Source: Calocera cornea HHB12733 (Eukaryota; Basidiomycota; Dacrymycetes; Dacrymycetales; Dacrymycetaceae). Taken from it: a stretch of 64,000 nucleotides of DNA. Numbering within the stretch: position 1 is the stretch's first letter; every line of letters starts with the position of its first letter. Location of the stretch: positions 67,859-131,858 of the forward strand of contig KV423998.1 of assembly GCA_001632435.1 (NCBI GenBank). The letters are read 5' to 3'. The position numbers were made by a program, and so were the translations under genes. Below are positions 25,615 through 50,033 of the stretch, piece after piece. A model generated the notes under the pieces. The model searched no databases, was not told where the DNA came from, and saw nothing but the letters and a program-made list of their open reading frames with translations.

Positions 25615-25650
<36 letters not shown>

Positions 25651-27228: not shown

Positions 27229-27681
27229 TCATGATTTCCAGATGAGGATGGCGAGGGAGCGGATGTAGAAGTAGATGAAGTGCTTCGTCTCTGTCCGGCC
27301 GTCAGTCTTGGGTGCACGGATGCCGCGAAGCAAATGAACAAGGGGAGCAGGAGGAGGCGGGGAGAGGAGGAGGAAGATGAGGCGGACAAGGACTCGCGGC
27401 TCACCATGCGTGACATAGCTCCCATAGTTCTTCCCGACCACAACATGCCACGTCGGCTGGTACCGCCTGTCGAACTCGCGCTTGATATACGCCGCGATGT
27501 CCTTCTCGATGCTGAACTTCTCCAGGGCCTTGCTCGTGATCTCGATCGCCTCCGCCTGCATCTCCTCGCTCATGTCAACGTTCTTGATCGTCGCCTTGGG
27601 CTCGGAGCCGGGCGCGTCCTTCGGGATGGAGTCGGGCCCGGGGGAGTTGGACAGGTGCGTGGAGGAGTCTTTTTCGGACAT
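27229..27681 (-). CDS. Dynein light chain LC8 (DYNLL type)
   Basis: The small hub protein of cytoplasmic dynein and many other dimers. The LC8 core is unmistakable: [54 protein letters not shown], then across one intron (27291-27404) [20 protein letters not shown] to the stop. The core is about 87 residues. Ahead of it sits an N-terminal extension of about 28 residues, rich in Ser, Pro and acidic residues, beginning MSEKDSSTH at 27681. This ATG is directly preceded by CCCAG, which looks like an acceptor, and only five bases further upstream a run of 100 N begins. An upstream exon or 5' UTR intron could therefore be hidden in the gap, and the start is provisional. Confidence 0.93.
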
Positions 27682-27686
27682 CTGGG

Positions 27687-27786
27687 NNNNNNNNNNNNNN
27701 NNNNNNNNNNNNNNNNNNNNNNNNNNNNNNNNNNNNNNNNNNNNNNNNNNNNNNNNNNNNNNNNNNNNNNNNNNNNNNNNNNNNNN
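27687..27786. other. Assembly gap of exactly 100 N
   Basis: A run of exactly 100 N, the usual placeholder for a gap of unknown size. It lies immediately upstream of the LC8 start, next to G-rich repeats. Confidence 0.98.
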
Positions 27787-27898
27787 GTGCAAGTGAGCAC
27801 GCGGGGAGAACAGGGACGCGAGGGAGAAAGGAGCAAGCAGGGGTCAGCGGTGGCGCCAACGACACGCGACAGGAAGAATGCGGACACGTACGGCGGGA

Positions 27899-28016
27899 AT
27901 GGGGCTGGGGCTCGGGGCTCGGGGCTTGGGGCTCGGTGGGGATGGACAGGTCGTACGCGTAGTCGCGGGGGAGCGGGGTATCCGGTAGATGCGGGTGCGG
28001 GTGCGGGTGCGGATGT
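27899..28016 (+). repeat. G-rich tandem repeats (GGGGCTC / GCGGGT units)
   Basis: GGGGCTG/GGGGCTC/GGGGCTT units at 27901-27940, then GCGGGT units at 27991-28015. Four or more runs of three to four G at short spacing could form G-quadruplexes. The adjacent assembly gap fits a hard-to-sequence tract. Confidence 0.7.
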
Positions 28017-29631
28017 GGAGCCTCGGAGGACGGGCTAGGGGAAGCCGTGGTGGGTGAGCACGAGTAGGAGGTTGGGCGGCAAACGGGGACGCACGCGACG
28101 GTGGGCTAGCGGTGGTTGGGGTTAAGTAGGTTGGAGAGGGTGAGGAGAGGGAGGATGAGTGGGCTCGGCGTCAGGGACAGGGAGGGGATGGACGGGGAGG
28201 AGGGGGTTATGTATCTATGTGGGTGGGAACACAGCGCGCAGAAGACGGGGGAACGAGCGATGGGGAGCACGGGGAGCACGGGGGCGGTCGTGCGCGTGGG
28301 AGCGTCGACGGTGACTGGGCTGGAGCGGGCGGGGACACGACTGGCTACCACTGGCGCCTCAAAACGGTGCACACGCCAGGCACACACGCAGGGCCCACCG
28401 CCGCGCACGACTCGCTTTCAATCCCTTTGGGGCCACCTACCGCATACCGCACACCGCAGTCACGTGCATACTTCACCGCATTGTCACCCTGGAGGCAAAC
28501 ATTGATGAGCCGCAGACTCGGCCGGGTGCATTGCACCCGCGGGGAGCACGCGTGGGCAGGGCACGTTCCTCACCTTCTGGAAGACGCATGTGCTGCAACT
28601 CCGAGCCGGCGCGGCAGGCCACACCACCGGACGGCGCCGAGGCCGAGCCCCTGAGTGCTTGTGCTTGTGAGGAGTACAGTGAGAGACATCGAGTCACCAC
28701 CCACCCGGGGGTGGAGTGTATGCCCCGGTCGGAAGGCATGCGCCGCATTCGGTGGGGGTTACCGGGTGATTACGTCAGGCGAGCGTTGGCTCTTACGCCG
28801 GCGTGCACCGAAGTCGAGTTGGCCGGAGGGCGACCCGCCGGATACGTGGCCCGTTGCAGGATGTACAGCGCTATGGTACAGTCGTGTCTTGCTTGGTATG
28901 TACAGAGAGGTGCTACACTTCGGTGAGGAGGGAGGTGGCACATGCCCCCAAAGGGCGGGATTGGACCGAGTCCTTCTCCAACGCATGCACTCCCCCCCAC
29001 CGACCGACCGCGTCGGCCCCAGCCGACCGCCAAATAAGTGCGCGCGATGGCAAACACCACAGCACGCGCATGTGCAATGTGCTGCTGGGGCGCGCTCCCA
29101 CGAGGGACGTTGTTCGCGAATACGGGGAAGAGGGTGGTGCGGTGGGCTGCGGTACGTATTTGGAGAGGGCCCAGCCGGCTGGGAAGGCGGGTATGGGAAT
29201 GCGCGAGCGGGGAGCGCGTGGGTGCCAGTGCTGGATGGGGATATCAGTGATCACTGCGTATTCATTCTTCTCGCTGTGTGCACTCCGCCAACACAGATCA
29301 CCAATGCATTACCGAACCGAGGCGCCAACCCCAGCTCGCACGATCCACATGCCAACACCACACCCTCCGCGCCAAGAAAGAAACATCGAACGCAGGTACA
29401 GGAGAGAGAGGTGTCGATGTCCGACCGCACAAAAATCCGCCCTGCCATGGCCCCCTCGGGGCAAAAGACAGCACGGTGTAAGAATAGCGGTCCCCTCCCG
29501 CCCCCCGCTTCTGGGGCGGGGCGGGAGCCGTCCGTCCGGGACGTCCATCTGGGCCTGTCACCAGAACCGCTGCAGTGTGGGGTATGAGGGCTGCGCGGGC
29601 AGAAAGAGGCCGGGGTTCGGTTCGGAAGGGG

Positions 29632-29709
29632 TGAGACTGAGACTGAGAGACCGAGACTGAGACTGAGACTAGGAAATGGCATGTGGGAAATGGGAAATGG
29701 GAAATGGGA
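29632..29709 (+). repeat. Simple repeats GAGACT and GGGAAAT
   Basis: Imperfect GAGACT hexamers (29632-29671) are followed by four GGGAAAT-type heptamers (29684-29709). These are non-coding microsatellites upstream of RAD54. Confidence 0.75.
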
Positions 29710-30067
29710 GACTGAGGAGGAAGGAGGGAGAGGAGGATGTGAAGCGGGTTACGATCGGGTACTCCGGGGGCGAGTATGGGTTGAGTTGTACGATGTGCAT
29801 TGCCAGAGACTGCAAGAGGAGAAAGGACTGAAAGAGAGCGAGCTCGAAACGGGCCAGTGCAGCGTACAGTAATTTTCGTCGTCCACCCTTGAGCTAAATG
29901 CTTCCGCCCAGTCACGTGCCAAAAGAAATCACCCGCGTCCCGCGGTGGCTACAGTCAGCAATCTCCTGCGCGTCCTGCCACCGCGCGCCTCGCCTCCTTC
30001 CCTCCTCCACTCTGCTTCGCACCACCACACCTCCCTCTTCCCCCTTCCCCCCCGGCCGGAATCAGCG

Positions 30068-34573: not shown

Positions 34574-35953
34574 ATGCATCGATTCTGGACAATCGTTGAA
34601 CTGGTGGAGATGGTCGTGGCAAACTTGGAAAAGCCCGATGCATGGTCGCTGTCTTCAGCAGGCAAGATCGTACACGACATCGCTATCACGCGCGTATGGC
34701 AAACTCCAAGTGAATCACAGCTGGAGAATATCTGTGATGTTCTGTTCGGAACGTCTTGGGGGCCAGTAGTGTGTCACAGTTTCTTTTCACCGCCCTCTCG
34801 ACATGGCTGACGTTCTGTCCAGCAGTTCACGGAGGAAGGCTGGACCCGGTTCCTCTTCTACTCGAGCAAGATGCGTAGTCTGTCGCTGTTGTATCATCCC
34901 AGAGAACGAAATAGCGCCTTCTCCGTGAGGACGCCGACCCACACCTATTACACCTACTTCGAGGCGATCGTGTCATATGCTGGACATCAGCAAGCAGACG
35001 TGTTCCCCCGATTACGCCGCCTCTCCTGCGACATCACCAGTCAATCATCGCTTGATATGTTGAAAGGGTTGCTGACCGAGAAGCTGGAGAGTCTGGACGT
35101 GTCCTTGCCCAATGTCCTGCATGACCAGTGGTACGGTGTGCCGAAAGAGGTGGAGCAAGCACGACTTCTGGCATCTGTCACCCAACTTGCAGTCAAATCG
35201 CCATGGCTGACCCAACTGGAGATCCGCGGGCTCCCCAGATACACCGACGAGCACTTGGTATTGCTGAGGGCGTATGCCGCCGCTACCCCGCGCCTGAAGG
35301 TGCTGAAAATGCAGCCCAATTGGCTCGACGTGATGCTACATCCCATTACATTGGAGGTCGCGTCGTCTTGGCCCCGCTTGGAAGAGCTTTCTCTACTCAT
35401 CACGGAGAACTATGAGAACCACGGAGACGTGCTCACTTCCTCTCCTTCATTCACTTTTCCTGGCTTGCAATCACTGGAGCTCCTCTCCCTCGGGAAGACA
35501 CCTGTTCTGATGGCCCTCCGTGCATGCTCAACCCCGCTTCGTAAGCTGCATCTTAACGTCGGTCTAGACTCCGCCTTCCATTGCGACTTCGATTCCGGTT
35601 ACCCTAGGCTCCCGCACTTCCATCCGAAAGCGATAGACTTTACGTCACTCTATGAGATGATCGATGAGGTGCTTTCGGCGGTCTGCTCCAGCCAGGCGAC
35701 GCCACAACTAGAAGACCTCTCCCTCAGATTTTCCCTACCTCGGGCGCGTAACCAGATCACAAGAACGGGGGAAGGAATTTCTTTCGAGATGTTCAAGCCA
35801 CTGCTCCAACAATGTCCCAACATGAAGCGGTTCGAGCTCAACCTGCACCTCGGTCCGTGGGCCGAAAGCAGGCTGTTCGACTTCCAGGACTCAGACCTTG
35901 TCGGCATTGGTGAAGCCTGGCCAGGCCTGCAGCAGTTCAGCCTCAAATGGGAA
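34574..35953 (+). pseudogene. F-box/LRR gene, 5' part, interrupted by a transposon
   Basis: Start MHRFWTIVELVEMVVANLEK (34574) shares the MHR-x-W opening with F-box copies A and B, followed by an F-box-like helix. An intron (about 34768-34823) leads to a long exon of leucine-rich character: LRRLSCDITSQSSLD, LTQLEIRGLPRYTDEHL, RLEELSLLITENYEN, FPGLQSLELLSLGK, NMKRFELNLHLG and LQQFSLKWE. The coding frame continues into the inserted DNA for 11 codons and stops at 35984-35986. The usual C-terminal LRR block of these agaricomycete proteins is missing here but appears, in frame, at 49638-50033. What remains could still produce a truncated protein of about 450 residues. F-box proteins recruit substrates to SCF ubiquitin ligases. 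Confidence 0.75.
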
Positions 35954-36227
35954 GCCAGTCAGCTCCTCGGCCATCAGCAGTTTTGAAGGCGGCTCCAGAG
36001 CCATCCAGAGCTCTTGGGTGCACGGGAGCATTCTGAGACGGGTCCCCTCCCTAGAGATTCTCCGAGCTGTCCAGGAGCGCGAGTTTAGCTCCCCAGCACT
36101 CCTCGAGAACCTTGTTTCTCCTGAGGGCTCTGGGCCTTCTGATGCATATGGCGGCTCCCACAGGCCTACTGATCGGCGCGGATACTTGGGGAGCTACACT
36201 TGTATCACGTATAATAGCATTGCACAC
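35954..36227. other. Left terminal segment of the element
   Basis: Non-coding apart from the 11-codon read-through of the host frame. It holds the putative left terminal inverted repeat (35954-35966) and leads to the subterminal array. Confidence 0.5.
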
Positions 36228-36420
36228 GATCCTACTGTCACTACCTAATGTTCGATTTGGGGTTGCGTACAGGCTCGCCCGTCCCCCTTTAAGTCTCCCC
36301 CATTGAACACGGTCCCACTGCCGCTACCTAATGTTCGATTTGGGGTTGCGTACAGGCCCGCCCATCCCGCTTCGTCTCCCCCATATTCACTGCATCTTGC
36401 CATTCGATTTGGGGTTCGAC
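36228..36420 (+). repeat. Left subterminal array of TTCGATTTGGGG
   Basis: Three exact copies at 36251, 36334 and 36403. The first two sit in an 83-bp imperfect tandem unit (CTACCTAATG-TTCGATTTGGGG-TTGCGTACAGGC). All are in the plus orientation, opposite to the right-hand array. Likely transposase binding sites. Confidence 0.85.
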
Positions 36421-36504
36421 CACGCTCACCGAGATGGTTCGAATGTAAGATTGAGCCACTGACCGCCGCCCGAGTACGCTAGCGCAGAAAATCGTCGTCC
36501 GACA

Positions 36505-38741
36505 TCAATGGGATGCTAGTTTCTTCTTGTCCTTCAGAGGCACATACTCCAGCCCGATAGCTGTTGAATGTTGTTCAGCTAGCTTCAAATTGTTTATCCA
36601 GAAATACACTGACCAGCCCTGCACATAGAGCCTCTCGCGAAGCTTATCCAGTCCATCGGCGTTCACAGTCTGAAACTTGGCGAGGCAGCTGATATGATAG
36701 CTGTATTTCGTGCCGGCCGATGCTTGGGTGAAGTCTATTGGCTTTCGCACGCCGGTCGACCACTCCTTCACCACATGGTCCAGCTAGAACGCCACATCAG
36801 CAAGAAGTATCATCTGGGTTAAGGTGTTCACCTACCGCCGTAGCAGCGAGAGCAATCACTTGAGGAGGGATAGGACGAAACTGGGCCGCATACTGTACAC
36901 CAATTGGCGTCTTCGTTCCGAAAAGACAGCCGAGGATCACGGCCGAGAGTGCTTCTGACCCATACGCTCCAGACCGCTCAAAAGGATCCTACAGTACCCA
37001 TTTCAGATGCAGCACAGTTCCAGGAGCACAAGTCATAGCACAAACCTCGAAGGTCACTGCAGAACGATCACCCAACCATTCCGCTAGCTTTCGATTTGCG
37101 GCCTCTGCGTCTCGATCCTCTACAAAGCCCGTTGGTAAGCCACACTTTTCGGCCTTGTTCTCAGGAAGATGGAGTCGCGCGATTGCAACTCGAGCTGCGT
37201 TCTTAAACTCATTTGTCAGGTGCGATGTCCTCATCAGAATCTTCAGATTCGTGAGTGAAATTGGATTCTTCCGACCATTACAACAGACTCACAATGCGCA
37301 GGATGTCGTCCGTCTCCTTGTACGGTCGATGGAGCACATCGCATGCTTCTTGCCATGATTCCATTGCCAAAGTCATCATCTTCATTGGCAATTGGTATGG
37401 CCCATGTAGTAAGAGGTTCACACGAAAGATTTCGTTCGCCTGAGCAAGGATCCGCTTGGCCCCCTCGTCGATTCCACTCGCAGTCGGTTTCTTGTATTTG
37501 GCGCGCTTGAGAGGCGGTTCCTCGGACATGATTCCAACAGGTGTCAGACTGCATACGCCATATCGTCAGCACCAAATCAACCATTCGACTTTGACATACC
37601 TCATGACGGTCTTAGGCTCTGTAGAGGGGGCCATTTGCACAATGGTGCGAGCGTCCGAGTTCGTGTTCACATGGACCACAGAGCGATCACCCACAGAGGA
37701 AACATTCGCAGTCGACCGGGCAGACTTGTCCAAGGAGGGGCGCTCTAATCCTTCTTCTCTGTCGTACTCAGGCCATACTGCTCATCAATAACAGACTCAC
37801 CTTTTCCCCAGTTGCTAGCTCCTCGACCTATCTTGCCTTGGTGGCTCTTCCGTGGATTGAGATCATCGTCATACAGTGTCCTCGAAGATTTCACCTGCTT
37901 TCATCGTCGAGTCAACTGGCAACATGACTGAATAAAGATTTTACCCGAGATGGCAGCCCTGTGATGTGTGCAGCCCTGGCTCCCTCATTATCTCCGCCAC
38001 CTGCTTCATCCTCCCGATCATCCTCATAATCTCCGTCCTCTCGAAGGTTTGCTGCCTCATCTGCAGCAGCTCAGACTCATCAGATTGAGGTGAATAGCAA
38101 GGTGCAGACCGTTCAAAGTGTTCTCGTACTGGGGCACCCCCCAGGATTCCATTTCTTCCGGGTCGTCTTCACTCTCAAACTCGTCCCGGGCCACATATTC
38201 CGCCTGGCCAGCATCACCGTCCTCTGTCGAGCGTTTCTTGGGCACCACCAATGGTATCACAGGCGACGACGCACGCGATGCCCCCTGTGCACCCTTCTTG
38301 CTGCGCTCTTGGCGAGCCAGATTCTTGTTGATCTGTCCTTGTCCAGTTGTATTGCTTTGGATACGAACTGATTTTCGCAACGCTGGCGCCGTCGTGGCCC
38401 GCGCGTCATCTGCATGCCAATAATCAGACGACTCAGGCTGCAACTCTACAGCTACTCACCATGTTGCGGTCCTTTTGACCCTCGTTTCGGCACCCCTTGA
38501 GCGACTTTAGCTCTGTTCCGGGTCGCCGGATCCAGTGACAAGGGAATTTGCTGATGGGGCATGTCGCGCTTGAACTAAGAGCAGTGTTAGCGTCGTGTAG
38601 TATGAAATCGTGATGGACTCATGACGAGTTTACCTGCGAAATTGGAATGGCAATAGAGAGCTTGAAGTTGCTGGTGAGGTAGACGAGTACGGTGTCCGGT
38701 CTCTTGCATGCCAACAGTCGCTGCTCTCCAGAGAGTGCCAT
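36505..38741 (-). CDS. DUF6532-like protein, accessory gene of the element
   Basis: The frame is carried over about seven short introns. Start MALSGEQRLLACKRPDTVL (38741), then a basic, low-complexity stretch (KSVRIQSNTTGQGQINKNLA, ARQERSKKGAQG) and an acidic one. The conserved-looking C-terminal half begins AKRILAQANEIFRVNLLLHG and continues with MESWQEACDVLHRPYKETDD, DPFERSGAYGSEALSAVILG, and PIPPQVIALAATA before the last exon (WSTGVRKPIDFTQASAGTKY). The blocks DPFERSG..SEAL and the final SGxRxxxxF-like region resemble DUF6532 proteins, common in agaricomycetes and of unknown function. It is transcribed divergently from the transposase with 218 bp between the starts, so the two probably share a promoter. 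The basic N-terminus would suit a DNA-binding partner, but that is inference. Confidence 0.65.
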
Positions 38742-38959
38742 TTTCTTCACCGTTTTGATCTTTGATCAGTGTACGTTTTCGGGTGCTGAGAATCCCGCTT
38801 TAGGCACGGGAGCACATCCACGAGAAGCTCATCAGGGACCACTGATGACATTTATCATCTTGTCAGTGCCCGTGCCCTTATCCCGTTCGATTTCGGGTCA
38901 GGCAACAAAGCACCCCTCAACCGCTTTGAGTTCTACCATTCTTAGCTTAACTCCAAACA
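38742..38959. promoter_or_regulatory. Divergent promoter between DUF6532-like and transposase genes
   Basis: 218 bp between two divergent ATGs. It contains a one-mismatch copy of the element motif, TTCGATTTCGGG (38886-38897). A shared promoter, possibly autoregulated by a protein that binds this motif, is inferred from position only. Confidence 0.5.
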
Positions 38960-41900
38960 ATGTCTACTATCTGCCAGTATTGTGATCGCATGTTGCCAAC
39001 ACAAGCCGGGCTCCGCTCTCACTTAGCTCAATCACCAGCGTGCTACCAGGCTTTCCTTCGAGACGCGCAGAACGACACAGACCCCAAATCGAACACCCAT
39101 CAGAACGACACAGACCCCAAATCAAACACCCATCCGAGCTGTGAAGACAACCAGGAGATGCTACTGGAGCGGTCTCTGAATCTCGACCACGACATTGCGT
39201 TTGACAATCCTCCGATCTCGCCACACTCTGTGCATGCTTATGCGCCAGAGCCGCCCCCTAATCACAGCGGAATCGACAGCCGGCGCACAGACAGTAACAT
39301 GGGCAATGCGCCAAAGCAACGCTTTAGTGAGGTGTTCCCTCGTGATGCCGGAAGCGTCTACGGAAAGTCGCCTGCGCCTATGGCCGAAATGTGTTGCTAT
39401 CTCTTGGAGAGCCACGGTTCGATACATGGCATCTTCCAGACTGAGGCGGAATGGGATCTGGCGTGGAACCTTCATCGCAGTGGCCTTTCCAATAGATGGA
39501 TCAACAGCTTCCTCAAGTCACCATTGGTAAGCTGAAGTGGGTGGATCCGGACCATCTCGGCTGATTTCACACTCTTCAGCTCCGCCATAGGCCGGGTCCA
39601 ACGTTCACCAATGCGGTACAGCTCAAGCGCCTGCTTGATGAGCACCTGCCTCCGGCTCCTCGTTTCCAGCTCACGCAAATGGAGGTCGAAGGTGCCTTGG
39701 GTATGGCTTCGGAGACTCTGGAGCTGTGGGGACGAGATCCTCTAGAGTGCATTCGCGAGCTGCTGGGTGATCCCCTTTTCAACGGGTACATTGACTATGC
39801 TCCTCGTCGGGACTATGTTGATGAATCCCACACCGAACGCCTATACTCGGAGTATGCCACAGGAGACCATATGTGGAATACACAGGCAAGTCATGTTGGA
39901 TGTTGAAATGTGCGGCAATGTACTCATCTTCCGCTCCTCTCATAGGCACAGTTGCCCGATGGATCCACACTAGCGGCCGTCATTCTTGCATCAGACAAGA
40001 CACAACTGTCCATGTTCCGAGGCGATAAGAGTGCCTGGCCCGTGTATCTCTCCCTCGCCAATATCCACAAAGAAGTCCGTCGCAAGCCGTCAGAGCGCGC
40101 CATGGTACTCCTTGGCTATCTCCCTACCAGCAAGCTTCAACTGGGTCTAAGCGATGCCGAAAGAGCGATTCGTCAACATGAAGTCTTTCATCACTGCATA
40201 TCCACCCTTCTGCATCCAATGCACCAAGCAACAAAAGACGGTGTTATCATGGTCTGTGGTGATGGGATGGAGCGTCGTATCCATCCAGTTCTTGTCTCTT
40301 ACATTGCCGACCATCCCGAGCAATGCATGATTGTGACCTGCCGACAAAATCGTTGTCCCAGGTGCACCATCAAGCCTGTAGAACGCGGTGCTCCTATTGT
40401 AGGATCGACACGCGATCCTACAACGATCCTCCAGGTCGGCGTCAACAGCCCAGACGAACGATCCTTTTGAAGACAAATGAAGTTGCTCGGACTTCTACCG
40501 ATCGCTCATCCTTTCTGGTCCGAACTGCATGTCTCCGACATATTTGAAGCCATGACACCGGATCTTCTGCACGAGCTCCACAAAGGCCTATTCAAAGACC
40601 ACCTTGTTAAGTGGACAATGGACGTTCTGGATGTGCAGCGTTTGGATGAGCGATATAAGTCGCTTAGTGCCCATCATGGTCTTCTTGCCTTCCCTCATGG
40701 AATCTCGAAAGTCGAGCAATGGACAGGAACAGAATACCGGAATATGGAGAAGACTTTCTGTGCTGCAATAGCTGGCTTGGTTCCGTCTGCAGTTCAAAGG
40801 GCTGCTCGTGCATTGATCGACTTCATTTATCTCTCCCAGTATCCTCAGCACTCCAATGGGACACTTTCGCTTCTCAATGCATCATGGCAAGAGTTTCATT
40901 CGTTGAAGGCGGTGTTTCGTGATCTGCCCTCCTGTCATGGGTTCGACTTCCCCAAGATGCACAAGGCAAACCACAACTCCGATGCGATAAGGTCTCGAGG
41001 TACACTGGACGGCTATAGTACCGAGCTTCCGGAGCACCTACACAAGACCGAAGCAAAGCAAATCTACAGAGCGGGCAATAAAAAGGATCCCTTTCGACAT
41101 ATGTCCAAAGTGCTGCGACGAGATGCAGCTGTTGAGAAGTTTTGCCGCTACTTGCATTGGCTTCAGAGCTTCGGTGACGTGGACTGGGCCTCATCCACGT
41201 CACTGCTCTTCGAAGAAACATCGGTTCGATTTGAGGTCGCCAAAGGAGAGGATGACGCGTGGGGGAACCCGCTGCCAAGTCTCGTGGCACAACAGCGACG
41301 GGTCGCATTGCGTTGCCCACCGGCGGAGAAGACAGAGCATCGACTCCCCCGGGCTGCCAAATATCCTCGTTGGACAGTCCAGCAGGTTCAAAACAAGTTC
41401 GATGCTCGCGGATTGCTCTCGGCGCTCAGAGCTTTTATCGCAACCAACTACGCGGACTGCCAGTGGACTCCTGGCTTACAAGATCGTATTTCCGCGCACG
41501 AAAAGGTGCGCTTGGTTCTGCCTCCTCTCGCTGGGGAGCGAGAAGTATGGCGCCTCACGGCCCACTGTCGCCCACCCCAAATCGAAACGACTCTCCGAGG
41601 AGACAGCAAACCCAAGCGGTTTGATACTGTCCTTATTCCTACTAGAGAGTCGAGGGGTAGAACCCCCCTTCATGGTGAGCCACTATACACATCGGAGAAT
41701 GAGAGCTCATGCTTTGGCTTGATCAGGGCATTCAATCGCACTTCTGCGCATGGTCTTTCAGCTTGCACGTCAGCCGGGCTTGCCCGATCTCCAACTGGCA
41801 TATGTGGAGTGGTACACCGATCCCGTGCCGTCCTCCCAGGCGGGCCGGATGTTGCAAGTCATGCGAATGAGGGATGAGAAGGGGCTTGCCCGAGGTGAAG

Positions 41901-42061
41901 TAGTGCACGTCCAGAGCATTGCCCGAACCTGTCATCTTGTCGCCCTTTCGGATCGAACACAGGGCGACGGAGACGCCCCTGTCACTCGGGTAGTCACCCA
42001 AGAGAAGTACTGGGTAAATCCCCACATAGACCTTCATTTCTTCGCTACTTACATCATGTGA
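38960..42061 (+). CDS. Plavaka-type transposase, with one in-frame stop
   Basis: The N-terminus has a C2H2-like finger (CQYCDRMLPTQAGLRSHLAQ). The transposase core then reads LPDGSTLAAVILASDKTQLS, FRGDKSAWPVYLSLANIHKE, MVCGDGMERRIHPVLVSYIA, DHPEQCMIVTCRQNRCPRC, FEAMTPDLLHELHKGLFKDH and STELPEHLHKTEAKQIYRAG. These are the family blocks of Plavaka transposases, the first two with the Asp and the last with the Glu that I take as the DDE set. Introns: about 39529-39580, 39886-39944 (a GC-AG intron, CAG|GCAAGT) and 41673-41723. The C-terminal block is RMVFQLARQPGLPDLQLAYV...EKYWVNPHIDLHFFA. A TGA at 40468-40470 stops the frame between RSF and RQMKLLGL while the same frame continues for over 400 codons. 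No standard intron removes it, so this copy probably lacks a full-length enzyme. Confidence 0.85.
40468..40470 (+). other. Premature in-frame TGA in the transposase
   Basis: Both sides are in the same frame and both are clearly transposase. The only nearby GT..AG pair spans 38 nt and would shift frame. A recent nonsense mutation is the simplest reading. Confidence 0.75.
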
Positions 42062-42106
42062 GCTATGCTACTATTGTGCCCTCTACAGTGTGATCAGGGC
42101 AGCCGC

Positions 42107-42682
42107 CTAGAAAGTACAGTATTGGGAACGGTATACTCCTCCCAGCTTGTGCTCAAAAGCCACGTTACGATGGAGTCCGCCGACATAATTCCCCTCGGCC
42201 TCCAGAGCATTGACATCAACGCAGTTGATGACGCCAGCAGCCATAAGCACGCGAATGGCACGGCGAAACCATAGACGACACGTAAAGTTGGCGGGGAGAT
42301 CGTTGGGATGGGTCTGCATCGGGATGGTGGACAGGTATGCATCGAGCGTAGCTGGCATTCGACTTGAGGTCAGCGAAGGACAGAGTTGATCTCATGTACT
42401 GAGAACTTGAATGTACGCACTGTGGGGAATGTATGGGCCGATCTGAACCGCGGCGAGCGCCGAGAACGATGAGATGGGACTGAAGTTCCTCATCTCATAC
42501 ATCCATCCAGCCATTCCGGGGAGTTGATTAACCACATGGAACGCCCAACGCGCAGTGGAACCATCGTCGGTCGTAATCATCCAATGAAAGCCGTCACTGC
42601 GCCAGGTGAGAACCATGTAAGTGCCGGCAACGTAGTTGGTGGGATCGACGGGCATGGATGATCCGGTATCGAATGATGTCAA
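42107..42682 (-). CDS. Small unknown protein, agaricomycete-type, two exons
   Basis: The first exon begins MTSFDTGSSMPVDPTNYVAG (42682; an in-frame Met at 42655 is an alternative) and continues TYMVLTWRSDGFHWMITTDD. The second carries FTCRLWFRRAIRVLMAAGVI and NCVDVNALEAEGNYVGG. The pairing GTYxVLxWRxxGxHW...FTCRxWFxxAxRxLxxxGxIxCxDVxALEAE is one I recall from a family of small hypothetical proteins in agaricomycetes; no function is known to me. The intron between the exons (about 42358-42420) has an acceptor CTCAAG, but no ordinary donor gives matching phase, so the gene may be slightly damaged. It is convergent with the transposase, whose stop is 45 bp away. Confidence 0.5.
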
Positions 42683-43111
42683 GGGCTGTTATGATCGAAG
42701 TGACGAGCAATGGCCAGGACGGGATCGGCAATCGGGCTTGAGGCTGATAACGTGGAGTGTGGGCGGTACAAAGATATAACGAGTGGGTGCGCGAAGCCGC
42801 TGAATGTAGACAGTGTCTAGGAGAAAACAACGCCCGGATTCTCGCGGAGGACAATACAAATGAGGAAGGGATTCCCAATTGGGAATCCCTGCCGCTCGGG
42901 TAGGCTGCCCGAGACCCGAATAGACTAGAGGAGCACGCGGACCCGTGCTGGACGCGTCACAAGCTCGCTGGCCGGATGTTTCATATAAACAACAGTCCCT
43001 ACCGTCGTAGGTGACTGCAGCCCTTTCTGACAGTGACCACCATCGTACGTGTTACAATTCGTTGTATGACAACCCACTAACGCAATAGCTTTCAGACCAA
43101 TACTGCTATCA
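42683..43111. other. Intergenic within element, with palindrome
   Basis: The region is between the divergent starts of the small unknown gene and the APH-like gene. No coding signal. It contains a perfect 22-bp palindrome and a short hairpin, listed next. Confidence 0.4.
42868..42913. repeat. 22-bp perfect palindrome plus adjacent hairpin
   Basis: GGGATTCCCAATTGGGAATC followed by CC (42868-42889) is a perfect palindrome. Six bases later CTCGGG-TAGGCTG-CCCGAG (42895-42913) can form a 6-bp stem. Could be an operator, a recombination scar or the edge of a nested insertion. Confidence 0.7.
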
Positions 43112-44063
43112 ATGCCGTCTCATCCGCAGAACATCTCCATGTTGTGGACCCTTTGGTTGGCTCTGCCGCAGGCTCTCCGAGGGTGGCTTTTGGCGTACAC
43201 GCTCCTTCTGTACAGCATCCTATGCAAGCCTCGGTGGTTCCTTCAACATCGGAAGATCCCGGCCTTGCCTAGAGTCATCAAGATGCACGGCGGCATCTTG
43301 GTGAAGAGCACAACCCACCGAGAGTGCGAGGCGACAGCATACATCAGTTCGATCAACGGTCTGAATCTCCCCGTCCCACGCGTAGTCGATATCGTCACCA
43401 TACCACGGAGTATCCGACCCTATTTCATCTGCAGCAGCATCGGAGATGACGAGGGAAGTGTACTCCTGCTAATGACCAGTCTTCCGGGCAAGCCTCTCGG
43501 GAGCGCACTCAATGACTTCTCCGAGCTACAGCTGCAACGCCTGACGAAACAGCTCCGCGGGTTTTTCGGCTCGATCAGGGATGTCCTCCCCACAAGTAAC
43601 ATGGTGTGCGGTATTGGAGGGCGAGGATGTGCTTCCTACATCATGTCTCTGGACACCTTTGGCCCATTCGAGTCGGTTGCTGCCTTCAATGACTGGATGG
43701 CTCTTCGTGCCCAGTCCCGTTACGGCCTCGAACGCGCTGCTTCGCTCCCCAAGAGAATCGACGCTGCAGAGACGCGCTTCGCGCATGGAGACCTAACCCC
43801 ATTCAACATCCTGGTGGATGAAGACGGGAATGTTACCGGCGTGATTGACTGGGAGGCCGCCGGATGGATGCCACGACACTGGGACCCTGCCTTGGTGAGC
43901 TAGACTATCAGCAAGCTCTCAACCGCGCAACTGACAGAGTCTCTAGGCACTGTGCGTGTATGGGCACTCAACCAAGTGGGCCACAGTTATTCATAGCGTG
44001 TTTTCCGACGTGGAGAATGACATGGCGATTGAAGATCAGTGGAGGGGTTGTTGGGGAATGTGA
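43112..44063 (+). CDS. APH-fold kinase-like protein, cargo gene
   Basis: Start MPSHPQNISMLWTLWLALPQ (43112) with a hydrophobic N-terminal stretch (about residues 10-35). The ATP-lobe has GGILVKSTTHRECEATAYI, with the Lys and the Glu expected in aminoglycoside-phosphotransferase folds. Hinge-like LLLMTSLPGKPLGSAL follows. The catalytic loop is RFAHGDLTPFNILVDEDGN (His-x-Asp...Asn) and the metal-binding motif is VIDWEAAG, both intact, near residues 227-255. A 49-nt intron (43895-43943) leads to a last exon ending DQWRGCWGM. APH-fold proteins in basidiomycetes are numerous and their substrates unknown; this need not relate to antibiotics. The gene has no evident role in transposition and looks like cargo. 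It is bordered by the palindrome at 42.9 kb and the repeat array at 44.1 kb. Confidence 0.75.
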
Positions 44064-44134
44064 GGCGGCGAGATTCGGCTTGCAATCACTGTAACTAGCT
44101 TGTTAGGAACAGTAGCTTGAATGAGTTATCATAT

Positions 44135-44384
44135 TCCATCAAACTGACCTCCTTCGATTTGGGGTTGTGCAGAGCAAGCCTGCCGCCAGTGTGGGCGACC
44201 TCTAATCGAACACAATCTCATGTTCCACCAACCTGACCTCCTTCGATTTGGGGTTGTGCAAAGCAAGCCTGCCGCCAGTGTGGGCGACCTCTAATCGAAC
44301 ATGATGTCTGTGTCGCGCCGCTCTACAATCTGCTGCTGTAGTGACTCAGCCGTGATAAGCCCGCTCTGTGTGTTCGATTTGGGG
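44135..44384 (+). repeat. Internal array of TTCGATTTGGGG with 89-bp tandem unit
   Basis: Two units (44135-44212 and 44224-44301), offset by 89 bp and nearly identical, each carry TTCGATTTGGGG at one end and an inverted relic CTAATCGAAC at the other. A third exact motif is at 44373. All have the same orientation as the left-end array. Confidence 0.85.
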
Positions 44385-44450
44385 GTCATACGCGTGCCAT
44401 TCATAGACGGAGGGGAAACATGGGCGCTGAGGGCGATGATCCTACATTGA

Positions 44451-47400
44451 CTAATCTTCTGCATCTGCGTCCTCGTCTACCCTCTTCCGCTTCTTCCCCT
44501 TATTTGCCTGCTGAGCTGGTTGTTCTGCCTCGAGCCTTCTCTTGGCGGCCTTCTTCTTCTTCTTCTCCTCTGACTCCAACTTGGCCATATCGAGCCAGTA
44601 TTCATCTCGCAGCTCTTCCCACACTTCCGGAGGCTCTTGATCTTCGCTGGCTTTGCCATTGTACCACGTGTTGTCTAATGCTTCACCGATCTCATGCCCT
44701 GTGATGACACCCTTTTTAGGACGCTTGTGCCGCCAATCTTTGCTTGAGACTGTAATGTTTAGATCAGCCGGCGGTACAACAGATGTGTGCATGGAACCAC
44801 AATCGACTTACTGTTTTTGATGCGAGCCCCCGGAAGGCGCATCAGACACTTCTGGTTGCTATCTTGACATTCGACGCAAGCGGCACCATCTGCGCCGTAG
44901 CAACACCTGTGGATGCCTTGGCGGGGAACAGCTTCACGATTTCGGCATCGGTAGCACATAAAAGGCCCAAATAATGTCTGGTCAACATGGTGAGATACTA
45001 TCGCGGGATCGCCAAAAAAAGCCTTACCCAGAACGGATGGTTCAACACCTTGTCGATGAGGACTGAGCCTGCTTGACGACACTCATCGATAGGCGGGATG
45101 TAATCGACTTCGAGGTTGGGAGGCGGGGCACGGAGTGTCTCTGGATTCATGTTGCCCACTGGTGTTCGACGAGATTTGCGGCCACCTCGGTGACGTTCGT
45201 GTACTTTTTGGAGTTGTTTGTCGTGATGCACCAAGATGTGCGCCGTGTGTAAGAGAATGCCTTCCCACACCTCTTCAGCCGTGGTTTTCCGTCCACCCGC
45301 CTGGGGATCTGCCAGATCCTCATCGTTGAAAGGGTCAGCCGGTCGCTGGACGTTTGCCACGACATACTTGAGCTCCGTCAGGAGAGCTTCTGGCAAGCCA
45401 AGCATGGGAATGGGCCAGTCTTCAATATCGTTTTCCAAGTGCCATTTTGTGGCATACGACATGACATCGAGAATGAAGGCTGCAAAGAAATGGGTAGGCG
45501 GCGAGTCGTAAAGATTGCGGTGGTTGAGAGTATCTGCCTGGAAGAGACAGGTCAGATTTGTCAATGAAACGTAGGGCAAGGGTGCGTACCAGATGGAATC
45601 TAGTGTTGGTCATCCACGCCGAGACCCGCGGTAATCCGGCGCTATGGAATTTGGGCCGGGGGCGAAGGAGAGATTTGAGCCGTCGGATGAACTTGGTGGA
45701 GTAGAGGTCGACAGTATAACGCTGAGCAGGTGATCCCTCCTCCCCATTCTCCACTTTTCGAAGCAACTCGAGGATGCACCAGGTTTTGCCGAAAACGACG
45801 TTGACCTCGTTGATATAATCGATCTTGACTGCCACATCGTACTCTAGTTTCCATGTCCATAGGTTGATTAAGTTGGAAGCGAGGGGTCCCCGCATTTGAA
45901 GCCACGCGACAGATCGACCAATGGAGATAAGGCGAAAGTAAGTGGACTGAGAGTAGTCAGAAGTCATTCATTCGATTTGGGGACGGCAGGGACGACTCAC
46001 TAGCCATTGGCATCGCGCATCGATAGCAACCAGCGCTTCAACGAGGTTGAGTTCATGTAATGGCGGGAGGGCAGGGCACCTTTCAAGGTCGTCGATGAGT
46101 TCCTGCGCAGCAGTGCAACGGACTATGCGCTGTTCCATGTTCAAGCGTGCAGTGTCTATCAGTGCCTGATATTCTTCCTCCTCGTCTTCGTCGAGCGGTT
46201 CGTGGTTGAGCCGAGTATTGTCCCGACCTTCACCTCCCCCACCTCCCCGTCCGTTGCGTCGTACCCACGCGGCGGCATGCTCCTTGGCCGCGCGAATGAC
46301 AATGTCAATACGTTCGTTGTCGTGAGCGAGGCTGTCGCGATGCCAAGCAGCGAACTGCCTCTGCAGATGGTATTAGAACCACAAAATCTATCAGACGTGC
46401 CATGGCATACCTGCAACGTCATGAGTTTCTTTTCATACTCCTCGAACTGTTCTTCAGTAGCGTTCAGCGTAAGTCCCACTCGGCCTAGATCCAGCAGTCC
46501 AGCTTCCGCGCTCTCGCGCTTTCTGACTTCTCGCATAATGTCCTCGCTATATGTTGTGCTGGCGGAAGTGCCGCTGTTGGGCTTTTCAACATTCGGCGCG
46601 AGCGCTTGCTGAATTTCTTGCAGATGTTCCTGCCAAACACATAAGTCATGAGTAAGAGAGAATGGAGACGGACGCACTTGATGCTCTACGGGGTCATCCT
46701 CTTCTTCGATCTCGTCACCCTCCTCTTCTTGGGCACCCGCAGCACGCGCACCCATTTCTTCTTCTTCGAAGTTGGCTTCAGACAACTCTCCAATGCTGGA
46801 CTCAACTGAACCGAGATCGGAACCCTCCAACAGATTGTCAGAATCATCTTCGTCCTCCTGCAATGAATGATCGTCGTCCATCTCCTCGTCTTCATCTCCA
46901 GGAAGCCACTCGGAATCTGACTCGATCTGTTTCTGCGGGTTGGTGGAAGAGGGGAGCGAGCCTTGCTGACTTGAGAGAGCCGACTCGCGTAGTTCGTGTT
47001 GCGAAGTGTGTTGCGTGGAATTCTGGGCCTGCGATGCTGGGGGGGGGGAACGATCGTCAGCGGCTGGGACGGCAGCCTCCAACGCAAGCGTAATGGCGGG
47101 TGGTACATGTCCAGCAAGGGAGCCTTGGGACTGTGATAAAGCATATGACGGGCCGGTCGATCCCTGAGAAGTCTGATGGGCCGGTGGACTGACGGAAGGT
47201 GCGTGGCGGAAAAGAGGAGGGACTCTTGGATCGGGAGGGCTTTGCAGAAGGACTCGAGCCGTAGTCACCTCCACTGCTTTCTTTCCGCGCCGAACAGCGT
47301 CAACCTTGTCACGCCATCTGAGAAGACGTCGCCTATCGCCTGCAGTCCCGTGAGGGACCGGGCGAGGTGGAGTGTGTTCGAATGCGGGTGACTTGAACAG

Positions 47401-47859
47401 TTGCGAGGGATGTGATATGGAAGATCCCGTGGATGTTGAGGGATGCTTTGGCGTATTGGTTGGAGAAGGACTTGAAGGACTTGAGAGCGAGAGATCGGGG
47501 GGCGGAGGGTTATGGTCGTAGGCAGGGTAGTGTCCTTGACGAAAGTGGGTGATATCAGGAGCGGACAAAGATGTACGGGTGGTCGAGGAAGACGTGGGCT
47601 TGATTAGCCCAGTGACTGCCAACGACGGGTCCAAACCAGCCGGAAAGCGAGCTGGGCCGAACTGGGATATGTCAGGTTCGGTTCCTTGGACTGTTGTGCG
47701 CGTGATAGGGCGACGGAGAGGTGGGTCACTGGGGTCGTCAACCGGCTGCCATTGTTGGAATGGTGCACCTCTCCTCCTTCGATAAGCTTTCTTTGGAGAA
47801 GTGCGGTGGTTCTGGTTGGGAGACGAAGTGCGGCGCTTTTTCTTCGGCGGCGAAGGCAT
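44451..47859 (-). CDS. Long acidic, Cys-rich unknown protein, accessory gene of the element
   Basis: A multi-exon gene of roughly 1,000 residues. Start MPSPPKKKRRTSSPNQNHRT (47859), an NLS-like opening. The first 300 residues are Ser/Pro-rich and disordered. Then comes a strongly acidic block (ESDSEWLPGDEDEEMDDDHS) running to about residue 430. The helical middle includes QFAAWHRDSLAHDNERID, RCTAAQELIDDLERCPALPP and FFAAFILDVMSYATKWHLEN. A Cys cluster follows, in FGPFMCYRCRNREAVPRQGI and HRCCYGADGAACVECQDSNQ, reminiscent of zinc-binding Cys motifs in other agaricomycete hypothetical proteins. The tail is Lys-rich (EKKKKKAAKRRLEAEQPAQQ) and ends EDADAED. One intron (45959-46010) contains an exact copy of the element motif. 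I do not recognise the family. Its features suggest a nuclear, nucleic-acid or chromatin-associated partner, which is inference. Confidence 0.65.
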
Positions 47860-48213
47860 TAAGGAGGATGTGTGCTGGCTGGCGACGGGGAGAGAGGAGA
47901 CACGGTTGATGCGAGCCCTGAGGGGACGCGGCCCCAAATCGAACGAGTATAGTACGCGTCTGCTTCCGCCCCAAGGCTGTTCGATTTGGGGCCGTACTTC
48001 ATCCCTCAAGTTACTAAACAGCTTGCACATCGCGGGTTGGCGTCGGCTCTTTCCTGAACTGTCTCGCTTCCTTCACCGAGCTTACGCACAGCATCTGAAA
48101 CACCTTGCCATCTTCCGTGTATCTCGCTGTAGGGCTCGAAAAGGAATCGTGTGATCGACTCGCTTCCTGGGCATCGGTGCCGTTCCTACTTCACTTGAAG
48201 ATCGGCCAGCAAC
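47860..48213. promoter_or_regulatory. Divergent promoter with inverted pair of element motifs
   Basis: 354 bp between two divergent starts. Exact motif copies face each other: CCCCAAATCGAA at 47932-47943 and TTCGATTTGGGG at 47980-47991, centres 48 bp apart. Such an inverted pair suits a dimeric DNA-binding protein; this is inferred from layout. Confidence 0.55.
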
Positions 48214-49104
48214 ATGTCTAATCGCTATCCGTGGATTCTACCCCATATGGTGGAGCAGTCTGCTCCACTGACGTACACTGCGATCGTCCTCGATACCGAC
48301 CCGGTTCATCCATCTGTCATTCCTGCGGTCGCAACGTCTACCCGGTACCCCTTTGCCCCACTCTCGTACTTCGAAATCGACGAGGAACGAAACAGTCTGC
48401 TAGGTCAACGGTGGACGCACCTGAAATGGCTTCTCGAGCAGTCTAAAGTCCAGCTGAAACAGGCGAATGAGAAAGGGCGCCTTCGCATGGAGCTGAACTG
48501 GCTGGCCGAGATTCGCCTAGTCCCTGACGAGCTGCTGGATGGTATGGTTGAGGGAGCATCGCAAGAGCGCCTCGAGGCACTATCCGATCATATGGCCATG
48601 AAGGAGAACATTACCGAGATCCTGGAAGTGCTGCGCATCAAGCGCCACCAGCGCATTGAGATCGACTATCGCAATGGCATCCCACCTATCAATGCTCTCT
48701 CGACCACCATCCTGCACGCAGTCATGAGAGACATAGACGCCAACCTTGCGACAATTCGTGTTCTGGTCGATAGATACCAGCCGAATGGCATGGTGATACT
48801 CAACGGCATGCAAGTGAGCGATTTGGTGCAATGGAGGGAAATCAGGCAGAGGTCTCCGCATGCGCAGCAGAAGATTCGACACTACATCACGCAGAAGCAA
48901 GGGGCGTTCATTACAAGACGTGGACTGGACGTTCTGAAGTATGACCGGAGGCTGCTAAATGAGGAACTTGCTTCGTGGAGCCGCGCTAAATCGGGTCTAG
49001 CGACTGCTTGCGGGAGTTTCCATCTGGACGATCCCAGTTCGACTGAGTCTGGCGAGGACAGCGAGGCGGAAGGGAGTATGATGGAGGAGGACGGCAGTCA
49101 GTGA
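48214..49104 (+). CDS. Unknown 296-residue protein, accessory gene of the element
   Basis: A single-exon frame from MSNRYPWILPHMVEQSAPLT (48214). The N-terminal quarter is Pro/Thr-rich; the rest is predicted by composition to be mostly helical, with charged helices such as RWTHLKWLLEQSKVQLKQAN and LSDHMAMKENITEILEVLRI, and a basic stretch LRIKRHQRIEIDYRNG. The C-terminus is acidic (STESGEDSEAEGSMMEEDGS). No membrane span, signal peptide or known motif is seen, and I do not recognise the family. It pairs divergently with the long acidic protein gene, mirroring the divergent transposase pair in the left half of the element. Full-length, undisrupted coding suggests it is, or recently was, under selection. 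Confidence 0.65.
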   Translation: MSNRYPWILPHMVEQSAPLTYTAIVLDTDPVHPSVIPAVATSTRYPFAPLSYFEIDEERNSLLGQRWTHLKWLLEQSKVQLKQANEKGRLRMELNWLAEIRLVPDELLDGMVEGASQERLEALSDHMAMKENITEILEVLRIKRHQRIEIDYRNGIPPINALSTTILHAVMRDIDANLATIRVLVDRYQPNGMVILNGMQVSDLVQWREIRQRSPHAQQKIRHYITQKQGAFITRRGLDVLKYDRRLLNEELASWSRAKSGLATACGSFHLDDPSSTESGEDSEAEGSMMEEDGSQ

Positions 49105-49283
49105 GAGCATAAGGCAGGGAGGGCTGGTCAGATGTAACGGTCAATAAAGCACTCCAAATCATGTATAATTACTAGCACTTAGTCACTTAGTATAATGAAC
49201 AGAGTTCAAGATGGTCAAGAATCAGTCCAGCCTGAAAGCCTGGCAGCGCGTCGGCATGCCCCTAATTGAACGGGGTTCGCCCT
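49105..49283. other. 3' flank of the last element gene
   Basis: AT-rich, non-coding, with AATAAA (49142-49147) 38 bp after the stop codon, a candidate poly(A) signal for the 296-residue gene. Confidence 0.5.
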
Positions 49284-49456
49284 GAAGCCAGCCGACCCCA
49301 AATCGAACCTCACGCACAGGGTGGGCTTTGAAGCCAGCCGACCGCAAATCGAACCTCACGCACAGGGTGGGCTTTGAAGCCAGCCGACCCCAAATTGAAC
49401 CTCACGCACAGGGCAGTGGGCTTTGCAGCCAGCCGACCCCAAATCGAACCTCAGGT
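49284..49456 (-). repeat. Right subterminal array of the element motif
   Basis: Four tandem units of 46-49 bp (GAAGCCAGCCGA-CCCCAAATCGAA-CCTCACGCACAGGG...). Motifs at 49296 and 49437 are exact; those at 49342 and 49388 have one mismatch. Another one-mismatch copy lies at 49590-49601. Orientation is opposite to the left array. Confidence 0.85.
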
Positions 49457-49637
49457 GCGGAGAGGGATTTGCAGGAGACTACAGGAGTAAACCGGCCGCG
49501 AGTGAGCCACCGCAGGACCCGGAGGACGCGACTGGTGTCACTGGACCCCTGCCAAGCCGCAGGGGGAGGGAGCGCGTCTCGCTACAGCACCTCAAATCGA
49601 ACGGAGGCGCTACTGCGGCTCCCGGAGCTAATTGGAA

Positions 49638-50033
49638 TCTGCTGATGGCCACGGTCTGTTAGACCCTAACAAGGTGACGTTCGGTGGAGTCCTTTTCGCG
49701 CTTGCAGGCTGCCGGCAGCTCGAATCACTGCACTTCTCGTTCCTGGACGGCAGCGGCTCCCTTCCCGACCCTACTTCTCTCCCCGCCCCATCCTCCCACC
49801 TGCGGAACCTGACGATCGACAAAGGCCGCCTAGAGCACGGGCGGGAGTCCGCCGAGTTCCTGTACTCCCTGTGGCCGCGCGTCGAGCTGGGGTGGACGAA
49901 GGACTACGCCGACCCCACTGGGGTGTGGGAGCCTGTGGGGAGGGTGCTAGAAGTGCTGAGACGGGGAGGGAGGGTCACGCGCTCGCTCGGGAAGGTCGAG
50001 GAGCCGTGGAGCAGTTTGTTGCCTTATGTATAG
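49638..50033 (+). pseudogene. F-box/LRR gene, displaced 3' part
   Basis: The frame opens directly at the right border of the element with SADGHGLLDPNKVTFGGVLF, then ALAGCRQLESLHFSFLDGSG, SSHLRNLTIDKGRLEHGRES and AEFLYSLWPRVELGWTKDYA, ending LLPYV. This is the usual C-terminal LRR block of agaricomycete F-box proteins (a cysteine-capped repeat with L-x-x-L-x-x-x-F, a fL..lwP segment and W-x-x-V). It has no start, promoter or F-box of its own. Its frame matches the frame at 35953 when the insert is removed, so I read it as the tail of the gene at 34574. By itself it is not expected to be expressed as a protein. Confidence 0.7.

What the first reader, a model, noticed from the sequence alone, without database searches (positions are those of the whole stretch)
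35954..49637. A 13.7-kb multi-gene Plavaka transposon with its own accessory gene set
The sequence shows a clear Plavaka transposase together with five more genes inside one unit bounded by a likely 3-bp target duplication and matching subterminal arrays. CMC/CACTA elements usually carry one or two proteins. Here two divergent gene pairs (DUF6532-like with transposase; long acidic Cys-rich protein with a 296-residue unknown), a small unknown gene and an APH-like gene travel together. The unit could be a large cargo-carrying DNA transposon whose partners assist or control movement. The bounds and gene set are seen; the joint function is inference.
Basis: partly seen in the sequence, partly recalled or inferred. 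Interest (0 to 1): 0.88.

Follow-up and report, generated by a model that had tools for sequence, protein, structure and literature searches.

The report
Six-gene jumping element in jelly fungus
A 13.7-kb piece of DNA in a jelly fungus is a cut-and-paste transposon that carries five genes besides its transposase, and seven copies in the genome keep the same gene order (two lack the last gene), which suggests that the extra genes do useful work for the element rather than being accidental passengers.

Summary
The unit is real: one of seven copies in this genome (Calocera cornea, by protein names and most contig lengths). True ends are 35972 and 49647; the target duplication is 2 bp (GC), not 3. 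All seven copies start CATC(A/G)GC, end GCTGATG and show matching 2-bp duplications at different sites; here, removing the element joins a host reading frame. Ends and duplication match the described PlavakaB group.

Six genes form three divergent pairs: DUF6532|transposase, papain-like DUF6914|APH kinase, acidic Cys-rich|helical protein. Five genes are in 7 of 7 copies, the sixth in 5. All six show dN/dS below 0.5 in every unsaturated comparison. The subterminal word TTCGATTTGGGG occurs 75 times in 32 Mb, 68 of them inside these elements, at both ends and in the promoters of the first and third pairs, but also inside some genes.

DUF6532 lies beside 20 of 31 strong Plavaka loci (not all independent), so it looks like a general Plavaka partner. 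This copy's transposase has a premature stop that five aligned copies lack. What the extra genes do is inferred, not shown. New variant of a known kind.

The parts
35972..49647 (+). whole element, 13,676 bp, from CATCAGC to GCTGATG
   Evidence: ends fixed by alignment with other copies; 2-bp duplication
35970..35971 (.). left copy of the 2-bp target duplication (GC)
49648..49649 (.). right copy of the 2-bp target duplication (GC)
35972..35983 (+). left terminal inverted repeat, CATCAGCAGTTT
   Evidence: same start CATC(A/G)GC in 7 of 7 copies
49634..49647 (-). right terminal inverted repeat, ending GCTGATG
   Evidence: same end in 7 of 7 copies
36251..36414 (+). left subterminal array, three exact TTCGATTTGGGG, all in + orientation
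49296..49601 (-). right subterminal array, five sites with at most one mismatch, all in - orientation
36479..38568 (-). gene A, DUF6532 protein, about 540 aa, multi-exon; upstream start uncertain (one model begins at 38741)
   Evidence: model; PF20149 1.4e-38; dN/dS 0.15-0.27
38960..42061 (+). gene B, Plavaka transposase, about 970-980 aa, N-terminal zinc-finger-like motif (Pfam matches below cut-off); in-frame TGA at 40468-40470
   Evidence: dN/dS 0.10-0.20
42107..42655 (-). gene C, about 159-166 aa, DUF6914/DUF6540-like, predicted papain-like; H24, H40 and C103 invariant in six copies
   Evidence: DUF6540 placed among papain-like families in PMC10318531 (passages)
43112..44063 (+). gene D, APH-family phosphotransferase, 299 aa, HGDxxPxNIL and IDWE present in six copies
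44129..44384 (.). D-E junction: 89-bp direct repeat and three exact motif sites
44451..47859 (-). gene E, about 1046 aa in my model (the public model of the same gene has 760 aa), acidic stretch, conserved core and six invariant cysteines in a CxxC..C..CxxC..C cluster; relatives labelled PF26625; possible upstream start at 48002
48214..49104 (+). gene F, 296 aa, single exon, predicted helical at low confidence, no Pfam match
38886..38897 (+). motif site (one mismatch) in the A|B divergent promoter; one such site in 6 of 6 aligned copies
47932..47991 (.). two exact motif sites in the E|F divergent promoter; at least one site in 6 of 6 aligned copies
34811..35971 (+). host reading frame, open part upstream of the insertion
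   Evidence: paralogues run across the junction
49650..50033 (+). host reading frame, part downstream of the insertion, in frame after removal of the element and one duplication copy

Best explanation
It is one mobile unit: a PlavakaB-type DDE transposon (CMC/CACTA relatives) that moves six genes together as three divergently transcribed pairs. Shown: the ends, the 2-bp duplications, the same order in the other copies, and purifying selection on all six genes. Inferred mechanism: transposase B, helped by its usual partner A (DUF6532), binds the inverted TTCGATTTGGGG arrays near both ends, cuts, and inserts with a 2-bp duplication. The same word in the A|B and E|F promoters suggests that an element protein (the zinc-finger-like end of B, or the Cys-cluster protein E with its partner F) also controls the element's own transcription, as TnpA does in maize Spm (recalled). 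C|D is read as a helper or persistence pair, a papain-like enzyme with a kinase-like enzyme, acting on the host rather than on the DNA. The copy in the window is probably not self-sufficient because of its premature stop.
For: Seven copies at different sites; 2-bp duplications GC, GA, AT, TG, TA, TG, CA, 7 of 7. Order A-B-C-D-E in 7 of 7, F in 5 of 7. Purifying selection on every gene (unsaturated pairs: A 0.15-0.27, B 0.10-0.20, C 0.10-0.20, D 0.13-0.25, E 0.11-0.21, F 0.20-0.45). 68 of 75 exact motif sites of the genome lie in the seven elements. Sites are inverted at the two ends and present in the A|B and E|F promoters in 6 of 6 aligned copies. DUF6532 within 9 kb of 20 of 31 strong Plavaka loci; random placement mean 1.1, largest 6 in 2000. 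The host frame joins across the element, and 15 of 15 other matches in the genome span the join.
Against: No protein binding or transposition was tested. C|D pairs occur without Plavaka at four other loci, and solo E and F copies at four loci each, so C-F can exist without the element. F is missing from 2 of 7 copies. 11 of 31 strong Plavaka loci have no DUF6532 within 9 kb (one of them, C132, is one of the seven elements and just misses the cut-off; three others sit at contig starts), and several of the 31 are near-identical, so they are not independent. Motif sites with at most one mismatch also fall in the C|D promoter in 3 of 6 copies and inside genes A, B and E in 6 of 6, so the motif is not confined to ends and two promoters. 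Folds of E and F were of low confidence.
Confidence: 0.8

Rival explanations
1. Genes C to F are passengers that help the element persist by serving or manipulating the host (stress enzymes, an addiction-like pair, or anti-silencing factors); movement needs only the DUF6532 protein and the transposase.
For: C|D pairs exist on their own at C50, C77, C120 and C161. A Plavaka of another family at C91 (79167-87743, 8.6 kb) has DUF6532 and transposase and no listed match to C-F. F is absent from 2 of 7 copies.
Against: E and F share the element's motif in their promoter in 6 of 6 aligned copies, which fits a role in the element. Selection on E is about as strong as on the transposase.
Confidence: 0.3
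2. The unit is a composite: two or more neighbouring or nested elements, with E|F (and C|D) inside a second element.
For: A motif array and an 89-bp repeat lie at the D-E junction. One copy (C109) changes its relatedness at that junction, as if E|F had been exchanged.
Against: An exact pattern for the right end occurs six times in the genome, each time at an outer right end (the C64 end differs too much to match it). The order is the same in all seven copies and the duplications flank the whole.
Confidence: 0.06
3. A duplicated host gene cluster that happens to contain a transposase.
For: The copies are old and diverged, so there is no obvious transposon burst.
Against: Matches stop at the element ends, ends are exact and 2-bp duplications are found in 7 of 7. 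Here a host reading frame is interrupted and joins cleanly.
Confidence: 0.02

Closest known systems
PlavakaB DNA transposons (PMC12730594, passages read)
   Same: Plavaka transposase; termini CATCA..TGATG; 2-bp target duplication within the described 2 or 3 bp
   Different: carries five further genes in three divergent pairs; no TET/JBP match; two of seven copies begin CATCG
TET-carrying Plavaka, Kyakuja and Zisupton elements of fungi (same paper, passages)
   Same: a cut-and-paste element that carries a gene beyond its transposase
   Different: here no TET/JBP match; instead DUF6532, DUF6914, APH, PF26625-type and an unknown helical protein
En/Spm (CACTA) of maize (recalled)
   Same: subterminal arrays of a short word at both ends; the same word at promoters suggests self-regulation
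   Different: 3-bp duplications and CAC..GTG ends there; different proteins and number of genes
Starships (recalled; one search listing, PMC12134995)
   Same: fungal transposon that carries accessory genes
   Different: no tyrosine recombinase match here; far smaller; basidiomycete host; DDE transposase

Membership tests
PlavakaB | Plavaka transposase domain PF18759 | tested here: met
   (3.3e-60 and 2.7e-15 on two exons); all seven copies over the cut-off
PlavakaB | termini 5'-CATCA..TGATG-3' | tested here: met
   window copy, C67, C64, C132 and C111 exact; C109 and C93 begin CATCG; right end TGATG in 7 of 7
PlavakaB | 2- or 3-bp target duplication | tested here: met
   2 bp in 7 of 7
[quoted passage not shown]
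   CPRC, HKANH and the E of YSTELPE invariant in six aligned copies; choice of D and E residues is by eye, and the candidate first D is N in C111
PlavakaB | place in the transposase tree | not tested
   no tree with reference elements was built
CACTA/EnSpm proper | 3-bp duplication and CAC..GTG ends | tested here: not met
   2-bp duplication and CATC..GATG ends
TET-carrying fungal transposons | TET/JBP dioxygenase gene | tested here: not met
   no TET/JBP family in the Pfam scans of the six genes or their pieces
KDZ | KDZ transposase domain PF18758 | tested here: not met
   two transposase exons match Plavaka alone; none of the KDZ matches listed lies in the seven elements
Starship | tyrosine recombinase captain | tested here: not met
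   no such family in the Pfam scans of the six genes or their pieces

The most novel reading that the evidence does not exclude
Plavaka elements are multi-protein transposons. DUF6532 is the general second subunit of the transposase across the superfamily, and this family has added a self-contained control pair (Cys-cluster protein E with helical protein F) that works through the word TTCGATTTGGGG at both ends and at the element's own promoters, plus an enzyme pair (papain-like C with kinase-like D) that acts on the host. All of it is kept by selection at the level of the element.
Probability: 0.35. Interest if true: 0.82.

Novelty: new variant of a known kind. Interest (0 to 1): 0.66.

Why it matters
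DNA transposons of this group are usually thought of as one- or two-gene elements (general knowledge). Here a compact 13.7-kb element has kept six genes under purifying selection over a divergence large enough to bring synonymous sites close to saturation between its two clades, so the extra genes probably pay their way. It gives a likely context for DUF6532, a Pfam family of unknown function that one paper in the searched library names: partner of the Plavaka transposase. It also makes the question of what accessory genes do for eukaryotic cut-and-paste transposons directly testable in a small genome.

Tried and rejected
Rejected: the 3-bp GAA duplication and ends 35954/49637. The copies place the ends 18 bp and 10 bp away, at CATCAGC and GCTGATG, where 2-bp duplications appear in every copy.

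Rejected: the idea that the element aims at one host gene family, suggested by matches running past 49637. The extra matching letters are the true right end, and the flanks beyond it look unrelated.

Rejected as too neat: motif sites marking only the 'machinery' pairs. With one mismatch allowed, 3 of 6 copies also have sites in the C|D promoter, and sites lie inside genes A, B and E.

Led nowhere: structure predictions of F (mean pLDDT 54.6) and E (41.3), so no fold search was run. PDB sequence searches: E gave 3 matches with E-values of 0.33 to 0.78; C none up to E 1; D weak matches (E 0.0025-0.0031) to macrolide and aminoglycoside phosphotransferases. Pfam on the interrupted host protein gave nothing; my first label 'F-box/LRR' is recall only and is not claimed.

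Gene models: the first multi-copy modelling script let models run on through stop codons with a penalty and over-extended them; it was replaced, and some models of A, C, D and F still carry doubtful exons at their ends. dN/dS used only columns present in all modelled copies in runs of 10 or more (A 436 of 999, B 877 of 1104, C 138 of 230, D 287 of 370, E 842 of 1212, F 281 of 323). Of 41 pair-by-gene values 6 had saturated dS (A 2, B 1, D 1, E 2) and are left out of the ranges. C64 was not in these alignments because too little of it was fetched.

Not done: other species or strains (none held for this genome); promoter scan; gene trees.
Full report
What is there. The window is part of contig C85 of a 32.1-Mb genome in 302 contigs. 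Protein hits are named Calocera cornea HHB12733, and the contig lengths given for them equal those of C85, C67, C64, C111 and C109 (136532, 168098, 169987, 110278, 113029); for C93 and C132 the lengths differ (127321 against 125260, 92382 against 88639). I take the genome to be that jelly fungus, perhaps in another version of the assembly.

Ends and duplications. Aligning the copies fixes the ends at 35972 (CATCAGCAGTTT) and 49647 (GCTGATG); matches stop there or within about 20 bases. Two-base duplications are GC (window), GA (C109), AT (C67), TG (C132), TA (C93), TG (C111) and CA (C64): 7 of 7. By chance each would match about once in 16. Lengths are 13,676 (window), 14,009 (C109), 13,538 (C67), 13,723 (C93) and 13,739 bp (C111) for the five copies with all six genes, and 12,461 bp for C64, which has no listed match to gene F and little room for it. 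C132 (17,874 bp) contains a run of N and also has no match to F. In the window the insertion splits a host reading frame; removing the element and one GC joins it in frame, and 15 of 15 other matches in the genome (26-36% identity) span the join.

Genes. A conservation-guided gene model gives six genes: A (-) DUF6532; B (+) Plavaka transposase; C (-) about 159-166 aa; D (+) APH-family; E (-) about 1046 aa (the public model of this gene has 760 aa); F (+) 296 aa. They form three divergent pairs A|B, C|D and E|F. C is DUF6914/DUF6540-like: below the Pfam cut-offs for the window protein (24.7 and 21.2 against 27 bits), above that of DUF6914 for the C109 protein (31 against 27). A survey of papain-like enzymes lists DUF6540 among families with a C-H-H triad, with LRAT and NlpC/P60 (PMC10318531, passages). 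H24, H40 and C103 are invariant in the six aligned copies; naming these as the triad is my inference. E has an acidic stretch and six cysteines invariant in five aligned copies; seven of nine relatives carry the label PF26625, 'putative Zn2Cys6', though the Pfam copy used here gave no such match to E. F is predicted helical at low confidence.

Which genes travel together. Protein searches of the genome place C, D and E in all seven copies and F in five; A and B are in seven. Outside the elements, C and D occur together, divergent, at C50, C77, C120 and C161; E without F at C78, C260, C196 and C8; F without E at C120, C271, C58 and C2. None of these lies within 10 kb of a listed Plavaka or KDZ match, as far as the contigs reach. 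D also has weaker relatives on C14, C249 and C97, and C a weak one on C171. Searches of 5.8 billion proteins for E, F and C returned 9, 5 and 3 proteins; all that bear a name are from Calocera cornea. That search needs shared exact words and similar length, and for E and C only the roughly 8,000 candidates sharing most words were scored, so relatives in other fungi may be missed.

Selection. Nei-Gojobori estimates between copies (seven pairs for A-E and six for F, 41 values, 6 saturated ones left out): A 0.15-0.27, B 0.10-0.20, C 0.10-0.20, D 0.13-0.25, E 0.11-0.21, F 0.20-0.45. The closest pair (window and C67) has dS 0.41-0.60; between the two clades (window, C67, C132 against C109, C93, C111) dS is 1.85 or more or saturated in the pairs computed. 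C, D and E are held about as tightly as the transposase, A a little less, F least. C109 is a mosaic: over genes C and D it is as close to C111 as C93 is (81-87% against 79-84% identity), but from the D-E junction on it falls to 56-74% while C93-C111 stays at 67-81% (dS agrees).

State of this copy. The transposase frame here has an in-frame TGA at 40468-40470; five aligned copies read arginine there (C64 not checked). C111 has N in place of D in the ILASDKT stretch. Whether any copy is active now is not known.

The motif. Exact TTCGATTTGGGG occurs 75 times in the genome: C64 11, C67 13, C85 13, C93 9, C109 5, C111 8, C132 9, that is 68 of 75 in the seven elements, and seven single sites elsewhere; the reversed control word occurs once. 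With at most one mismatch, in 6 of 6 aligned copies (C64 not included) the left end has 2-3 sites all in + orientation, the right end 2-5 all in - orientation, the A|B promoter exactly one, the interval of the E|F promoter one or two, the D-E junction at least one; C|D has none in three copies and one or two in three. Sites also lie inside genes A, B and E in 6 of 6. This is what binding sites of an element-encoded protein would look like; which protein binds is not known.

DUF6532 as a partner. The 74 Plavaka matches merge, by hand, into 40 loci, of which 31 are strong (165 bits or more). DUF6532 (88 matches, merged by hand) lies within 9 kb of 20 of the 31; random placement gave a mean of 1.1 and a largest value of 6 in 2000 trials. 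It is upstream in 19 of the 20, divergent in 11 and codirectional in 8; in one it is downstream. C132 misses the cut-off by about 0.2 kb; three of the others sit at contig starts. None of the nine weaker loci has it. Some loci have equal or nearly equal scores (C154, C158, C229, C280; C55, C148, C228, C295; C123, C128) and are probably recent copies of one another, so the 31 are not independent trials. A second Plavaka family at C91 (79167-87743) has DUF6532 and transposase, ends CATCAGC..GCTGATG and a different repeated end word, CTGACAGTT; its 2-bp flanks do not match.

Against the literature. The termini and duplication fit PlavakaB as described in PMC12730594 (passages read): 5'-CATCA..TGATG-3' with 2 or 3 bp; the passages I read say nothing of the accessory genes found here. 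A library search for DUF6532 gave one paper, a Pfam list in which Plavaka and DUF6532 both appear for two Ganoderma species (PMC8955403, passages). 'Plavaka' gave 11 papers, 10 listed, of which I read passages of those two. Passages of PMC12810828 describe mobile CMC and KDZ elements of Cryptococcus, the KDZ ones about 9-11 kb; no comparison of sequences was made. Searches combining Calocera cornea with transposons, the Pfam names, and KDZ/Plavaka names with cargo or accessory genes showed no report of this element among the rows listed (12, 2 and 15 rows). The library holds open-licence papers only and the supplementary sequences of PMC12730594 could not be read, so a described relative may exist.

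Verdict. A real, single, multi-gene PlavakaB element; a new variant of a known kind, chiefly interesting for its conserved accessory gene set and for pointing to DUF6532 as a Plavaka partner. How the accessory genes act is inference.

Noticed in passing
own genome, C91:79167-87743 (ends in L060 and L061): Another Plavaka family, 8.6 kb, with DUF6532 and transposase and a different subterminal word (CTGACAGTT); there may be further coding sequence near its right end; its 2-bp flanks (TG and CA) do not match.
   Followed up: partly
own genome, C50, C77, C120, C161: The papain-like/APH gene pair occurs as a divergent pair with no listed transposase nearby; possible source or offshoot of the C|D module.
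   Followed up: partly
own genome, contigs C55, C228, C295, positions 14-727: Three contigs begin at the same place in a Plavaka transposase, as if the assembly broke in a repeated copy.
   Followed up: no
own genome, C140, C13, C21, C128, C211, C232, C98: Seven weak Plavaka-like loci with nearly equal scores (six with an open frame of 470 aa), suggesting a separate, recently spread family.
   Followed up: no
L031, transposase of the C111 copy: An aspartate of the ILASDKT stretch, conserved in the other five aligned copies, reads asparagine, so this copy's transposase may be inactive.
   Followed up: partly
window 44129-44306: An 89-bp direct repeat with motif sites in both orientations lies between genes D and E; in another copy (C109) relatedness changes at this junction.
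   Followed up: partly
window 22001-30000: G+C rises to 0.68 with strong and changing GC skew, unlike most of the window.
   Followed up: no
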